From: Pleurocapsa minor HA4230-MV1
Lineage (GTDB): Bacteria > Cyanobacteriota > Cyanobacteriia > Cyanobacteriales > Xenococcaceae
Length of the DNA stretch: 64,000 nucleotides
Direction of reading: 5' to 3'
Assembly: GCA_019359095.1 (NCBI GenBank)
Contig: JAHHHZ010000036.1
Span: forward strand, 434,001-498,000
Shown here: positions 49,620 to 53,908 of the stretch, piece after piece
Position numbering within the stretch: the stretch's first letter is position 1
Layout: each line of letters starts with the position of its first letter
Position numbers and translations under genes: made by a program
The notes under the pieces: generated by a model
What the model was told of the DNA's origin: nothing
Databases searched by the model: none
What the model saw: only the letters and a program-made list of their open reading frames with translations

Positions 49620-52600
49620 TTACTTAATCTTGGCACAAGTTTGATTGGCAACCTTGGCTTCTTCTGTGGCAGATGTTGTAAGCAGAGAATGCTCGCGCAA
49701 ACGATCGCAAGCTAGTTGTAACCAAGTTGAAAAATTACCCCCCTGCCATAACCGTATTGTAGTATCCCAACTGCCACTGACAATTTTTTGCCCATCAGGA
49801 CTAATGGCAACAGAACTGATTGGAGTTTCATGTCTTTGTAATGGTTGACCGATCGCTTTGCCTTGTTTGTCCCATAATCGTAGCGTGCGATCGCGACTAC
49901 CACTCACTATGTATTCTCCATCAGGACTAAAAGCAACTGAGGTAACAGCACTGCCATGTCCGATAAAAGGCTGACCGATCGCTTTACCTTGTATATCCCA
50001 CAATCGTAGCGTGCGATCGCGACTGCCACTAACTATGTATTCTCCATCAGGACTAAAAGCAACTGAGTTGACTATATCTGGATGTCCGTCCCAGGATTGA
50101 CCGATTTGGTTGCCTTCTAGATCCCACAGCCGAATCGTCTTGTCGTTACCACCACTGATAATTTGTTGCCCGTCGGGACTAAAAGCAACGGAGAAAACAG
50201 CCGTCTCATGCCCGATAAAAGGTAGAGCGATCGCCTTGCCTTGTTTATCCCACAATCGTAGAGTGCGATCGCGACTGCCACTAACTATGTATTCTCCATC
50301 AGGACTAAAAGCAACGGAGGTGACAGCGCTACTATGTCCTTTAAAAGAATCACCGATTTGGTTGCCCTTTAGATCCCACAACCGAATCGTCTTGTCGTTA
50401 CCACCACTGATGATCTGTTGTCCATCGGGACTAAAAGCAACGGAAGTGACAACTTTATCATGCCCGATAAAAGGCTGACCGATTTGATTGCCCTTTAAAT
50501 CCCACAACCGAATCGTCTTGTCATTACCACCACTGATGATCTGTTGTCCGTCGGGACTGATGGCTACAGCTAAGACTTTATCCTGATGTCCTACTAAAGT
50601 GCGATCGCCTAGGAAATCGGCTTTCTTCCACAATCGAACTGTACTATCTTCGCTACTACTAACAATAGTTGCCCCATCAGGACTAAAGGCAACAGAATAA
50701 AGATAATATTCGTGTCCGATTAGCGGTTGACCGATTTGATTGCCTTTTAGATCCCACAACCGAATCGTTTTATCATCGCTGCCACTTAAAATATATTTTC
50801 CATCAGGGCTAAAAATAACTGAACGGACAAAATCTTCGTGTCCAATAAAGGATTTGCCGATCGCATTACCCTTTTGATCCCACAATCGGATCGTATTATC
50901 GGCACTACCACTGGCGATCGTTTTGCCGTCTGGACTAAAAGCGACTGAGAAAACGTGGTCTTGATGACCCACAAAGGGCTGAGCGATAAGATTACCCTGT
51001 TTGTCCCACAGCCTAATTGTGTTGTCGTCGCTGCCACTGGCTATATACTGTCCGTCTGGACTGAAGGTAACAAACCAAATTTTCCCTTGATGACCATCAA
51101 AGGGTTGACCAATTTGGTTGCCTTTTAGATCCCATAACTTCACTCTGTGATCATCGCCGCCACTGGCTATATACTGTCCATCAGGACTGAAGGCGACTGA
51201 CAGCACTCTACCCTGATGACTTTTGAAGCGCTGAACGATATTACCCTGTTTATCCCACAGCCTAATTGTGCTAATTGTGTTATCACCACCGCCACTAGCT
51301 ATATATTGCCCGTCTGGACTGAAGGCGACTGAATGAACAAGACTTTGATGACCCTTAAAGGGTTGACCAATAGGATTACCCTGTTTGTCCCACAAGCGCA
51401 CTGTCCCGTCATCAGCAGCACTAGCAATAATTTGACCATCAGGACTAAAAGCAGCTGACCAAACTGGACCTTGATGCCCTCTCAAGACATTGCGTTCTAT
51501 CGGTACGTTGATCGCATCCCGTAAACTAGAGCGTACTTGGGGTAAAATCTGGGCGAAGCGATCGCCAAATCTGTCTCTACTCTCGCCATTAAGGGCTATG
51601 GCCTTAACTACCCCCTCTACAGGGTTGACACTCAGCAGATTGCTCGCTTCCTGTGCCTGTTCGCTCAGCTGTAAGATGCTTCTCTGCCGTTCGGCTTGTT
51701 GCCACTGCATACCTGCCAAAAGTGTGAGTCCAGCAAAAACGACAGATATGCTAGAAATTGCTATGAGTAGCTTCTTTCTGCGTGCTTCCTCTACATGGAG
51801 AAGGCGATCGCCTTCTGCTAGACTGGCATCGATAAATTCACTTTCCTCTGGTCTTAAGCCACCAATGTTTTTAAAAGTATCTTTTTGTCTAAAATCTACC
51901 ACCTGAGCTAATCGAGAGCCTTTCAAGAGTTCATCCTGAGCTTTAAGCTCATCTTTTGAGCGAATTTTTTGCCACCGTCTTGTCTCACCAGCTAACCAAT
52001 TTTTGAGAATAATTGCTTCTTTTTCTTCTTCAAGCCAGCATTTTAGCTCATTCCAAGATGAGAGTAAGATTTCATGGGCAATTTCTACAGTTGCCGATTG
52101 TTTTAGGGGCTTGCTTTCAATCACTGGCAGTCCTTTTATGCTTGAATATTCGCCACTACTAACATTACTAACCAGCAACTTTTCTTCAATAAATTTATTG
52201 AGGATCTTTTCTACTGATTCACCGACAAATTCATCTCGATAAGCCCGTCTGCTAACTGCTTTCCTGACAGAATTGTTGTCAACAATATTTACCAGCTTCA
52301 AAAATATTTGCTTGGTAGCTGTCTGTTGGTCTTGGTTCAAATTGCTGTATATTTCGCCGATCCGCTTTTGCAGCGCCCCTCTTATCCCCTCCAACGCTGC
52401 ATAATTTTTCTTGTTTAAGGTACGGTCTTCGATATTAGGACGACCATCAGCACCGAAAGATTGACATTCACTTTCCCAAAGCAAATTTAGGGTGTACTGC
52501 AATAGGGGAAGATAACCTTTTTGTCCTTCAACTTCCTGGATAATTTGTTCAACTAACCCTTTTTCAAACATAACCCCATGCTTAGCTGCTGGTTGCTCGA

Positions 52601-53456
52601 TCGCCTGTCGTAGTTCATCTGGGTACATCTCAGTCACCAGATGAATATTATTTTGATTGGCAATATTACCTAGATCGGGATAGAAACTCAACTGTTCCAG
52701 AAAGTCAGACCGCATTGCCAGTATAATCTTGATCGAATTATTACCCGACTTGGCAACTTGAACCAGACCTGAAATAAAGTTTTGGCGTTTGTCTAGATTG
52801 TCACAAATAGTGAACAACTCCTCGAATTGATCGACAAAAATGAGCCATCGTTCCCCATCCTGCCTTAAGGTACTAATCACTCTAGCTAGGCTATCTGTCT
52901 TTGCTTCCAGGGCAATCTCAGCTTCTGCTTTATTAAAGCTATAGTCCTTTTCTTCGCTGAGTAGACACCGATATAGAGAATCAAAGGGATCTTGATTGGG
53001 CGTAAAGATGAAGTCATAAAATGTTTGAGACTCCAGAGATTTCTTCAACTCAGGAATTAACCCAGCACGCACGACAGAGGACTTGCCACTTCCAGAAGCC
53101 CCTAACACTAAACTCAAGTTGCTGCGATTCACCGCCTCGAATAATCTGGCAATTAACTTATCTCTGCCAAAAAAGCGCTCTCTGTCTTTAAAGTTAAACC
53201 TTTTGAGTCCCTGATAAGGTGAATTTTTATTCAGTTCTCGCTGGGTGACCACCTCAACCGAAGACTGGATGATCTGCGTCTCGATGATGTTCTGAACTGG
53301 CGCAAAGGTCAAGTCACGCCCAACGTTAGCATTTTTAACCAAGTTATCTTGTGCTTGAGATAACCTTGTTAAAGCTAACTTATCACCGCACTTCACACAG
53401 AACTTTGTGTTGGGAAGATTTTGATGCAGACAATTAGGATTAGGGCATTGGCTCAC
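49620..53456 (-). CDS. Zinc ribbon - STAND NTPase - membrane helix - 14 WD40 repeat protein
   Basis: A 1278-residue multidomain protein. A four-cysteine zinc ribbon (Cys4, Cys9, Cys20, Cys23) is followed by a motif NVGRDLTFAPVQ (44-55), the STAND opener SPYQGLKRFNFKDRERFFGRD, Walker A GASGSGKSS (119-127) and Walker B LIFVDQFEELF. A membrane helix lies at about 562-582. From about 655 come fourteen WD40 repeats, enough for two seven-bladed propellers, several nearly identical. STAND-WD40 proteins act as ligand-triggered switches in signalling or conflict. The start is GTG with AGGTGAGG upstream. It follows the small partner at 53540-53908 by 83 bp. Confidence 0.93.
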   Translation of the reverse strand: MSQCPNPNCLHQNLPNTKFCVKCGDKLALTRLSQAQDNLVKNANVGRDLTFAPVQNIIETQIIQSSVEVVTQRELNKNSPYQGLKRFNFKDRERFFGRDKLIARLFEAVNRSNLSLVLGASGSGKSSVVRAGLIPELKKSLESQTFYDFIFTPNQDPFDSLYRCLLSEEKDYSFNKAEAEIALEAKTDSLARVISTLRQDGERWLIFVDQFEELFTICDNLDKRQNFISGLVQVAKSGNNSIKIILAMRSDFLEQLSFYPDLGNIANQNNIHLVTEMYPDELRQAIEQPAAKHGVMFEKGLVEQIIQEVEGQKGYLPLLQYTLNLLWESECQSFGADGRPNIEDRTLNKKNYAALEGIRGALQKRIGEIYSNLNQDQQTATKQIFLKLVNIVDNNSVRKAVSRRAYRDEFVGESVEKILNKFIEEKLLVSNVSSGEYSSIKGLPVIESKPLKQSATVEIAHEILLSSWNELKCWLEEEKEAIILKNWLAGETRRWQKIRSKDELKAQDELLKGSRLAQVVDFRQKDTFKNIGGLRPEESEFIDASLAEGDRLLHVEEARRKKLLIAISSISVVFAGLTLLAGMQWQQAERQRSILQLSEQAQEASNLLSVNPVEGVVKAIALNGESRDRFGDRFAQILPQVRSSLRDAINVPIERNVLRGHQGPVWSAAFSPDGQIIASAADDGTVRLWDKQGNPIGQPFKGHQSLVHSVAFSPDGQYIASGGGDNTISTIRLWDKQGNIVQRFKSHQGRVLSVAFSPDGQYIASGGDDHRVKLWDLKGNQIGQPFDGHQGKIWFVTFSPDGQYIASGSDDNTIRLWDKQGNLIAQPFVGHQDHVFSVAFSPDGKTIASGSADNTIRLWDQKGNAIGKSFIGHEDFVRSVIFSPDGKYILSGSDDKTIRLWDLKGNQIGQPLIGHEYYLYSVAFSPDGATIVSSSEDSTVRLWKKADFLGDRTLVGHQDKVLAVAISPDGQQIISGGNDKTIRLWDLKGNQIGQPFIGHDKVVTSVAFSPDGQQIISGGNDKTIRLWDLKGNQIGDSFKGHSSAVTSVAFSPDGEYIVSGSRDRTLRLWDKQGKAIALPFIGHETAVFSVAFSPDGQQIISGGNDKTIRLWDLEGNQIGQSWDGHPDIVNSVAFSPDGEYIVSGSRDRTLRLWDIQGKAIGQPFIGHGSAVTSVAFSPDGEYIVSGSRDRTLRLWDKQGKAIGQPLQRHETPISSVAISPDGQKIVSGSWDTTIRLWQGGNFSTWLQLACDRLREHSLLTTSATEEAKVANQTCAKIK

Positions 53457-53539
53457 AACTCGACCTCACCTAGATTGAGTAATCCTCGTCCTATTTTTGC
53501 CAAAAGTTGAGACCAAAATAACTTCATGATTCTATTTCC

Positions 53540-53908
53540 TTAACTCTTGCTTCCGTCTTGAACTGGTTTAAATTCAAAATTTCCACCAACATTTACACCG
53601 CTCACCTGGTTGGTTTGAGTTTGATTGATCATCGCCTGTCCACCAGGCTGTTCTTTGATCTGGTCGAGTAAATCTTGAACTAACTTGCGAATCTCAGGGT
53701 CATCATTGACCTTAGAGATTTCCACTTCTTCTTGTAATGTGGCTTTGCGCGCTTCCGAGTCTGGCTTCTTTTCTAATTTATCGACGGCATCAACCAGATC
53801 GCTTTTGTCGCCAAACTTTTTCTTCATAGCGTCTTTAAGCGCAACATAACAGTCTTTGCACGCATCGTTAGCCAGAGCAACCACAATTGCAGTTGTAATA
53901 GGGTCCAT
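53540..53908 (-). CDS. Helical STAND-partner protein (122 aa) with NVGGN...PVQ motif
   Basis: The first 90 residues are helical, beginning MDPITTAIVVALANDACKD and continuing with KFGDKSDLVDAVDKLEKKPDS, a type I have seen as a separate small gene beside cyanobacterial STAND proteins. After QPGGQ the chain turns into NQTQTNQVSGVNVGGNF and ends in FKPVQDG. NVGGNFEFKPVQ (106-117) matches NVGRDLTFAPVQ of the STAND protein at 7 of 12 positions. A good GAGGA ribosome-binding site precedes the ATG. It is the first gene of this two-gene unit. No catalytic residues are evident; it is likely a bridging adaptor, which is inference. Confidence 0.85.
   Translation of the reverse strand: MDPITTAIVVALANDACKDCYVALKDAMKKKFGDKSDLVDAVDKLEKKPDSEARKATLQEEVEISKVNDDPEIRKLVQDLLDQIKEQPGGQAMINQTQTNQVSGVNVGGNFEFKPVQDGSKS

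What the first reader, a model, noticed from the sequence alone, without database searches (positions are those of the whole stretch)
49620..53908. Two-gene STAND unit sharing a short motif: possible undescribed conflict or signalling system
The helical 122-residue protein ends in NVGGNFEFKPVQ (106-117). The neighbouring STAND-WD40 protein carries NVGRDLTFAPVQ (44-55) between its zinc ribbon and NTPase. Seven of twelve positions match, in two otherwise unrelated proteins that are transcribed together. A shared segment of this kind suggests co-assembly or shared docking on a third partner. STAND proteins with WD40 sensors are established as ligand-triggered switches; the motif-mediated pairing is inference.
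Basis: partly seen in the sequence, partly recalled or inferred. Interest (0 to 1): 0.75.

Follow-up and report, generated by a model that had tools for sequence, protein, structure and literature searches.

The report
Matched-motif receptor and cell-death-type effector
Two neighbouring cyanobacterial genes, a probably membrane-anchored sensor and a small helical effector, carry the same short tag, and comparison with relatives shows that this tag is what matches sensor to effector, much as in the bacterial amyloid-signalling pairs already described.

Summary
By itself the 7-of-12 match is weak: 66 of 500 shuffles reach it. The shared unit is about 22 residues long, 11 of 22 identical, which 1 of 500 shuffles reaches. 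Relatives settle it. A motif profile run over 388 genomes gives 27 hits at E<1e-5, 26 of them as 13 adjacent effector/STAND pairs. Among 67 non-redundant effector/downstream pairs 57 share a motif of some class; 20,000 permuted pairings never come close. At orthologous sites relatives carry different motif classes and both genes change together; in one case only about 400 nt holding both motifs differs while the receptor NTPase stays 97% identical. The effector's family includes members that carry the published BASS3 amyloid motif. The pair is best read as a BASS-type (bacterial amyloid signalling sequence) NLR/Bell unit: a known kind, not an undescribed system. Extra points: a predicted, position-conserved transmembrane helix that would put the WD40 sensor outside the cytoplasm, exchange of the motif pair as a cassette, and a second effector type with an internal motif. 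Amyloid templating and cell death are inferred, not shown.

The parts
53540..53908 (-). Effector gene, 122 aa, Bell-like / Pfam HetE-N (PF20701); six helices in the model, low-confidence tail
   Evidence: ORF; PF20701 E=7e-14, 52.4 bits vs cut-off 25; AF2 mean pLDDT 80.4, residues 102-122 below 50
53558..53623 (-). Effector-side motif, residues 96-117, QTQTNQVSGVNVGGNFEFKPVQ (class A)
53457..53539 (.). 83-bp gap between effector and receptor genes; no terminator-like site on the minus strand in a simple scan
49620..53456 (-). Receptor gene, 1278 aa: zinc-ribbon-like segment - motif - nSTAND1 - predicted TM helix - 14 WD40 repeats
53388..53447 (-). Zinc-ribbon-like CxxxxC...CxxC, residues 4-23; present in the window, L009 and L010 only, among 12 receptors aligned
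   Evidence: sequence; alignment
53292..53357 (-). Receptor-side motif, residues 34-55, QAQDNLVKNANVGRDLTFAPVQ (class A)
   Evidence: in a stretch (1-73) with pLDDT below 50
51957..53219 (-). nSTAND1 NTPase, residues 80-500 (GASGSGKSS at 119, DQFEE at 209)
   Evidence: PF20703 E=2.3e-107
51714..51770 (-). Predicted transmembrane helix, residues 563-581 (Kyte-Doolittle 19-residue mean 2.4), K/R-rich on the N side
   Evidence: relatives
49719..51488 (-). 14 WD40 repeats, spacing 42 residues but for one of 44 (mean pairwise identity 56%, best 88%)

Best explanation
The pair is a BASS-type signalling unit. The receptor is a STAND NTPase, predicted to be anchored in the membrane by one helix. Its WD40 repeats would lie outside the cytoplasm as the sensor, and its N-terminal motif inside, in a flexible arm. 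Ligand binding lets the STAND oligomerise and gathers the motifs (inferred from the STAND/NLR family). The clustered motifs nucleate a beta-rich, probably amyloid-like, fold that templates the like motif on the tail of the small helical effector (inferred from BASS3, HET-s and RHIM). The gathered effector domains then act, most likely on the membrane, causing death or arrest of the cell (inferred from the Bell/HeLo proposal). What is shown here, by computation, is that the motif is the matching element; assembly chemistry and outcome are inferred.
For: Motif A occurs in adjacent pairs: 27 hits with E<1e-5 in 388 genomes, 13 genomes with two adjacent hits and one orphan; the next hit is at E=0.008. 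57 of 67 non-redundant effector/downstream pairs share a motif (shuffle p<=0.01); summed score 3762 against 1957 +/- 94 for permuted pairs, maximum 2379 in 20,000. Effector motif follows receptor motif with both bodies controlled (partial r 0.72), while bodies do not follow each other with motifs controlled (r -0.04). Orthologous-site swaps are concordant: L073/L123 (B/A), L095/L069 (C/A) and one site in genus g21 with three classes. Effector homologues carry BASS3: L133 matches the published amyloid peptide ORT49035.1 at 14 of 20 positions; score 68 against at most 46 in 300 shuffled peptides. Effector tail and receptor arm have low model confidence, as expected of flexible segments (shallow alignments of 13 and 12 sequences).
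Against: No amyloid assay or predictor could be run on motif A. It contains a proline that is invariant in the 17 aligned copies, unusual in an amyloid core. The effector model has no PDB fold match (best E 4.6), so likeness to HeLo/MLKL is not confirmed, and its hydrophobicity is modest (19-residue maximum 1.17). 10 of 67 pairs do not share a motif. Within class A partners are no better matched than class-mates (p=0.13). The Dyrka profiles were not available, so assignment of motif A to a BASS family is untested.
Confidence: 0.8

Rival explanations
1. The motif pair works by homotypic co-assembly that is not amyloid: for example a short beta-arch or beta-sheet formed by the few copies on the STAND oligomer, without self-propagating templating. 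(This overlaps with the best explanation, which leaves the chemistry as probable only; the odds therefore do not sum to 1.)
For: The same comparative evidence fits any homotypic contact. The proline in F.PVQ is invariant in the 17 aligned copies of both sides.
Against: The same effector family carries BASS3, whose ORT49035.1 peptide showed aggregate spectra and Congo red staining (PMC8086366, passages).
Confidence: 0.2
2. Both motifs are docking peptides for a third protein.
For: Short flexible shared segments can be linear docking motifs; class A partners look interchangeable within the class (p=0.13).
Against: Several motif classes occur, each matched between the two neighbours, so each class would need its own third partner. 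I noticed no constant third gene in the loci read, but did not test this systematically. Effectors of a different architecture also match their receptors.
Confidence: 0.08
3. The similarity is chance or compositional bias.
For: The 12-mer alone is reached in 66 of 500 shuffles.
Confidence: 0.01

Closest known systems
BASS/Bell-NLR bacterial amyloid signalosomes (Dyrka et al. 2020, not held; seen only through passages of PMC7889193, PMC8086366, PMC9815663, PMC12261475)
   Same: Two adjacent genes; small helical effector with the motif at its C-terminus; NLR-type receptor with the motif at its N-terminus; several motif families; cyanobacteria among the hosts; effector homologues here carry BASS3.
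   Different: Motif A could not be matched to a named BASS family. The receptor has a predicted TM helix between NTPase and WD40, and in the window and two near relatives a zinc-ribbon-like segment before the motif. Whether published BASS receptors also have the helix was not checked.
Fungal HET-S/NWD2 and other fungal NLR amyloid signalosomes (recalled, and passages of PMC7889193)
   Same: Receptor N-terminal motif templates the effector C-terminal prion domain; repeat sensor at the receptor C-terminus.
   Different: No sequence relation of motif A to HET-s, sigma or PP was tested; receptor here predicted membrane-anchored.
Effector-associated domain (EAD) conflict systems (Kaur et al. 2020, 2021; passages of PMC7159879, PMC8195603)
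   Same: Homotypic modules on a core protein and on nearby effectors, exchangeable between systems.
   Different: EADs are small domains; here it is a motif of about 22 residues in a low-confidence, probably flexible stretch.

Membership tests
BASS/Bell-NLR unit | Adjacent effector and NLR-type genes share a motif at effector C-terminus and receptor N-terminus | tested here: met
BASS/Bell-NLR unit | Effector is a member of the Bell domain family | tested here: inconclusive
   Indirect support: PF20701 hit and homologues that carry BASS3 tails; the Bell profile itself was not available
BASS/Bell-NLR unit | Receptor has a STAND/NLR architecture with sensor repeats | tested here: met
   nSTAND1 plus 14 WD40 repeats
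BASS/Bell-NLR unit | Motif belongs to BASS1-10 | not testable with these tools
   Paper not held and profiles not available; the one BASS3 peptide I could read is not like motif A by eye
BASS/Bell-NLR unit | Motif forms amyloid and templates its partner | not testable with these tools
   needs peptides
HeLo/MLKL-type pore-forming effector | Helix bundle with a membrane-inserting N-terminal helix | tested here: inconclusive
   All-helical model, but no PDB fold match and KD maximum 1.17
Cytosolic NLR | No membrane anchor | tested here: not met
   By prediction only: segment 563-581; KD>=1.6 at Walker A +385..+480 in 40 of 46 receptors and in none of six other tiles

The most novel reading that the evidence does not exclude
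BASS loci act as allelic recognition loci. The two matching motif halves lie back to back in the DNA (effector gene first, receptor second), and are exchanged by recombination as one small cassette that resets partner specificity in a single step, while effector head and sensor are kept. The receptors are transmembrane, with an extracytoplasmic sensor and a cytoplasmic motif that seeds the effector: a Toll-like rather than NOD-like layout. A role such as kin or non-self recognition between filaments or colonies, as in fungal het loci, is not excluded.
Probability: 0.4. Interest if true: 0.78.

Novelty: new member of a known kind. Interest (0 to 1): 0.55.

Why it matters
The swaps are natural experiments. 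They indicate that a short motif, not the rest of either protein, decides which effector sits with which receptor. That makes partner specificity in bacterial amyloid signalling testable with pairs found in nature (same receptor NTPase with motif A or C; near-identical effector body with motif A or B). The predicted membrane anchor changes where the signal would come from: outside the cytoplasm.

Tried and rejected
Chance was tested and rejected. Finer pair-by-pair co-variation within class A was looked for and not found (p=0.13; class B p=0.0009, C p=0.23, D p=0.018, E p=0.40; the unassigned group p=0.0001 mixes several motifs). The effector has no match in the phage collection, and neither the effector alignment nor the motif-A profile gave a confirmed viral contig; the motif was not searched in the phage collection. 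PADLOC lists nothing for the effector; its two hits on the receptor are HEAT-ARM_XIII over the WD40 repeats and PD-T4-6 on residues 1-35. No PDB fold for the effector. That the receptor motif of L146/L149/L154 lies hidden in a frame overlapping the effector was checked and not supported: stops interrupt that frame. A KD>=1.6 test for the TM helix without position is unspecific (547 of 1100 shuffled stretches; 9 of 55 receptors have one inside the first 440 residues); the positional test was used instead.
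Full report
OBSERVATION. The effector is 122 aa (53540-53908, minus) and the receptor 1278 aa (49620-53456, minus, GTG start), 83 bp apart. The 7-of-12 match is real, but on its own 66 of 500 shuffles of both proteins reach it. Over 22 residues the match is 11 of 22, reached by 1 of 500. In an alignment of 17 effector- and receptor-side copies (of 19 distinct ones listed), Q1, Q3, F18, P20 and Q22 are invariant and N5 and V12 nearly so: roughly QxQxN(x5)NV(x5)FxPVQ. 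One receptor found later, L135, lacks the proline.

ANATOMY. The effector matches Pfam HetE-N (PF20701, E=7e-14). Its model has six helices (mean pLDDT 80.4); residues 102-122, with the motif core, are below 50. Foldseek finds no significant PDB match (best E 4.6). The receptor is nSTAND1 (residues 80-500, E=2.3e-107) followed by WD40, with 14 SPDG-bearing repeats. Its residues 1-73, zinc-ribbon-like segment and motif included, are below pLDDT 50 in the model of residues 1-560. The zinc-ribbon-like segment occurs in 3 of the 12 receptors aligned (window, L009, L010), so it looks like a local addition.

TRANSMEMBRANE HELIX. The receptor has a strongly hydrophobic segment at 563-581. Among 55 receptors of at least 600 aa from motif-sharing pairs, 49 have a segment with a Kyte-Doolittle mean of 1.6 or more after residue 350, and 45 of the 49 have more K/R on its N side. 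Taking 46 receptors with a recognisable Walker A motif, 40 have such a segment at +385 to +480, against none in six other tiles of the same proteins (n 46, 46, 46, 46, 39, 30). At 1.8 it is 36 of 46, against 49 of 2300 shuffled tiles. Against this: the criterion without position is unspecific (547 of 1100 shuffled stretches), and 9 of 55 receptors have a segment of 1.6 or more inside the first 440 residues. By the positive-inside rule, motif and NTPase would be cytoplasmic and the WD40 repeats outside. This is a prediction; no topology program was on hand.

THE MOTIF OCCURS IN PAIRS. A profile of motif A was run over six-frame translations of 388 genomes of the order (in some genomes only 22 of the first-look candidates were scored). 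At E<1e-5 there are 27 hits in 14 genomes. Thirteen genomes have exactly two, side by side in an effector and a STAND. The fourteenth, G607, has one: an effector with a degenerate motif whose downstream gene is a DNA-ligase-like protein (Pfam DNA_ligase_A_M, E=3e-8). The next hit is at E=0.008. In the window's genus 3 of the 13 genomes searched have the motif-A pair, so it is an accessory trait.

MOTIF CLASSES AND PERMUTATION TEST. A second effector query found relatives in 78 of 388 genomes, at 110 listed places. I fetched 100 of them; left out were the window's own place (used from the window), three pieces of places already covered, and six of the seven weakest. With 12 loci and the window this makes 113 rows. 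Of these, 74 have a Walker-A ORF downstream on the same strand and none upstream. Twenty rows had no downstream ORF of 150 aa within 760 nt, and 11 were set aside as likely duplicates; two of those, L012 and L015, may not be duplicates, and both share motif A. The 82 remaining gave 67 non-redundant pairs; the window itself falls in with its close relatives. In 57 of 67 the effector tail matches its own neighbour's N-terminus better than shuffles (p<=0.01). The summed score is 3762, against a mean of 1957 (sd 94) and a maximum of 2379 in 20,000 permuted pairings. The ten without a match are L080, L094, L098, L119, L127, L130, L147, L148, L149 and L154. By eye they include a broken receptor (L098), the G607 orphan (L127), a truncated effector (L130) and a damaged effector tail (L094); L080, L119, L147, L148, L149 and L154 stay unexplained.

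MOTIF AGAINST BODY. Over the 57 matching pairs (chosen because they match, which favours this test), effector-motif similarity follows receptor-motif similarity with both bodies controlled (partial r=0.72; 0 of 999 permutations, maximum 0.09). Body-to-body correlation with motifs controlled is -0.04. Within class A, own partners are not better than class-mates (p=0.13), so specificity is seen between classes, not within class A. Classes were assigned by my own patterns: A 11, B 8, C 12, D 5, E 8, F 2, G 3, unassigned 8.

NATURAL SWAPS. Of 55 locus pairs with upstream synteny, 42 lack alignment over the effector tail. Many of these are combinations of loci at one site in genus g21, and others involve broken copies (such as L064, L076, L094, L130, L132), so 42 is not a count of events. 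The clear cases: (1) L095 (class C) and L069 (class A), same genus: DNA is 90-96% identical for some 800 nt up to about 100 nt inside the effector, 45-61% for about 400 nt holding the rest of the effector and both motifs, then 88-99% over the next 1.8 kb; 342 of 350 NTPase residues are identical. Motif scores are 67 and 54 for own pairs, 26 and 23 for crossed pairs. (2) L073 (B) and L123 (A), same genus: upstream DNA 86-92% identical, effector bodies 75/81 identical, then tail, receptor N-terminus (24%) and NTPase (34%) differ, and the sensor region aligns again (80% DNA). Own 67 and 44; crossed 30 and 21. (3) One site in genus g21, with flanks 94-98% identical, carries three classes: YAATS (L060-L063, and L068 with an interrupted effector frame), NVVGSNRGT (L091, L110) and AEKQVIQQG (L136). 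Own 77, 70 and 60; crossed 21-25. Genome G564 of this genus has a 5,842,795-bp contig, which I recall as the size of the Microcystis aeruginosa NIES-843 chromosome; no call confirms the name. A weaker case is L075/L131 (different families; upstream match 78%). In each of these cases both genes change class together.

A SECOND EFFECTOR TYPE. Two weak motif-A hits in G656 led to an unrelated effector of 173 aa with the motif in its middle. Thirty-two of 388 genomes have a relative. I examined 36 loci (all places, some of them twice, and one more stretch); 28 pairs, 24 of them non-redundant, could be made, and 18 match their receptor at p<=0.01. The summed score is 1449 against 956 (sd 59), maximum 1223 in 20,000 permutations. 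Some members have a longer front; in L203 it is a CHAT domain (PF12770, E=4.4e-10). Pfam has no significant hit for the G656 protein (best E 0.08).

COMPARISON WITH WHAT IS KNOWN. PMC7889193 (passages) describes this layout: ten BASS motif families shared between NLR N-termini and C-termini of small helical Bell proteins in filamentous bacteria, cyanobacteria included, and less often CHAT or TIR effectors. The original paper (Dyrka 2020) is not held. PMC8086366 (passages) prints one BASS3 peptide. Effector tails in my set match it: L133 at 14 of 20 positions, score 68 against at most 46 in 300 shuffled peptides. Effector bodies of L133 and of the window's close relative L137 align with a local score of 101 (no E-value computed). 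So the window effector most likely belongs with Bell proteins. Whether motif A is one of BASS1-10 or one of the 'other BASS' is open. PMC8195603 (passages) mentions an uncharacterised effector domain shared with fungal HetE N-termini; that this is PF20701 is my inference. PMC10907252 (passages) predicts periplasmic sensors for some other STAND systems, so a membrane-anchored STAND is not unheard of. PMC12261475, PMC9815663, PMC7159879 and PMC7885112 were also seen as passages only. My literature searches listed no title on cassette exchange of BASS motifs; I read passages only and cannot claim there is none.

JUDGEMENT. Shown by computation: the motif is shared, class-specific, paired and co-exchanged. 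Inferred: amyloid templating, membrane attack, extracytoplasmic sensing, role in defence or recognition.

Noticed in passing
L095 4600-5050 vs L069; L073/L123; genus g21 site (L060-L063, L068, L091, L110, L136): Matched motif pairs differ as one DNA cassette at orthologous sites, flanks staying 86-98% identical.
   Followed up: yes
L190-L225: Unrelated effector family (173 aa in G656, or with a longer front such as CHAT in L203) with the shared motif in its middle, followed by STAND receptors; no significant Pfam model for the G656 member.
   Followed up: partly
window 51714-51770 and relatives: Hydrophobic, probably TM, helix 394-454 residues after Walker A in 40 receptors measured.
   Followed up: partly
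L226 (Tolypothrix sp. PCC 7601 conjugative plasmid, NZ_CP064884.1 50420-60725): Motif-A effector and a 103-aa receptor remnant with motif A next to an ISH3 transposase; an AAA ATPase gene lies 0.6 kb and a VWA gene 3.2 kb away on the other strand.
   Followed up: no
L227 (Acaryochloris marina MBIC10699 plasmid pREC3, NZ_AP026078.1): Effector and WD40 STAND in divergent orientation share another motif (GQ.A.GIIGQTVIGA): an exception to the effector-then-receptor order.
   Followed up: no
L146, L149, L154: Effectors ending in KK with a different tail, followed by a receptor reading frame with no start codon before IYNYY: receptor motif lost, or an unusual start.
   Followed up: partly
window 49719-51488; L143, L137: WD40 repeat number differs within the genus, but the count depends on the pattern: SPDG 14, 10, 9; looser pattern 14, 15, 10 for window, L143, L137.
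   Followed up: partly
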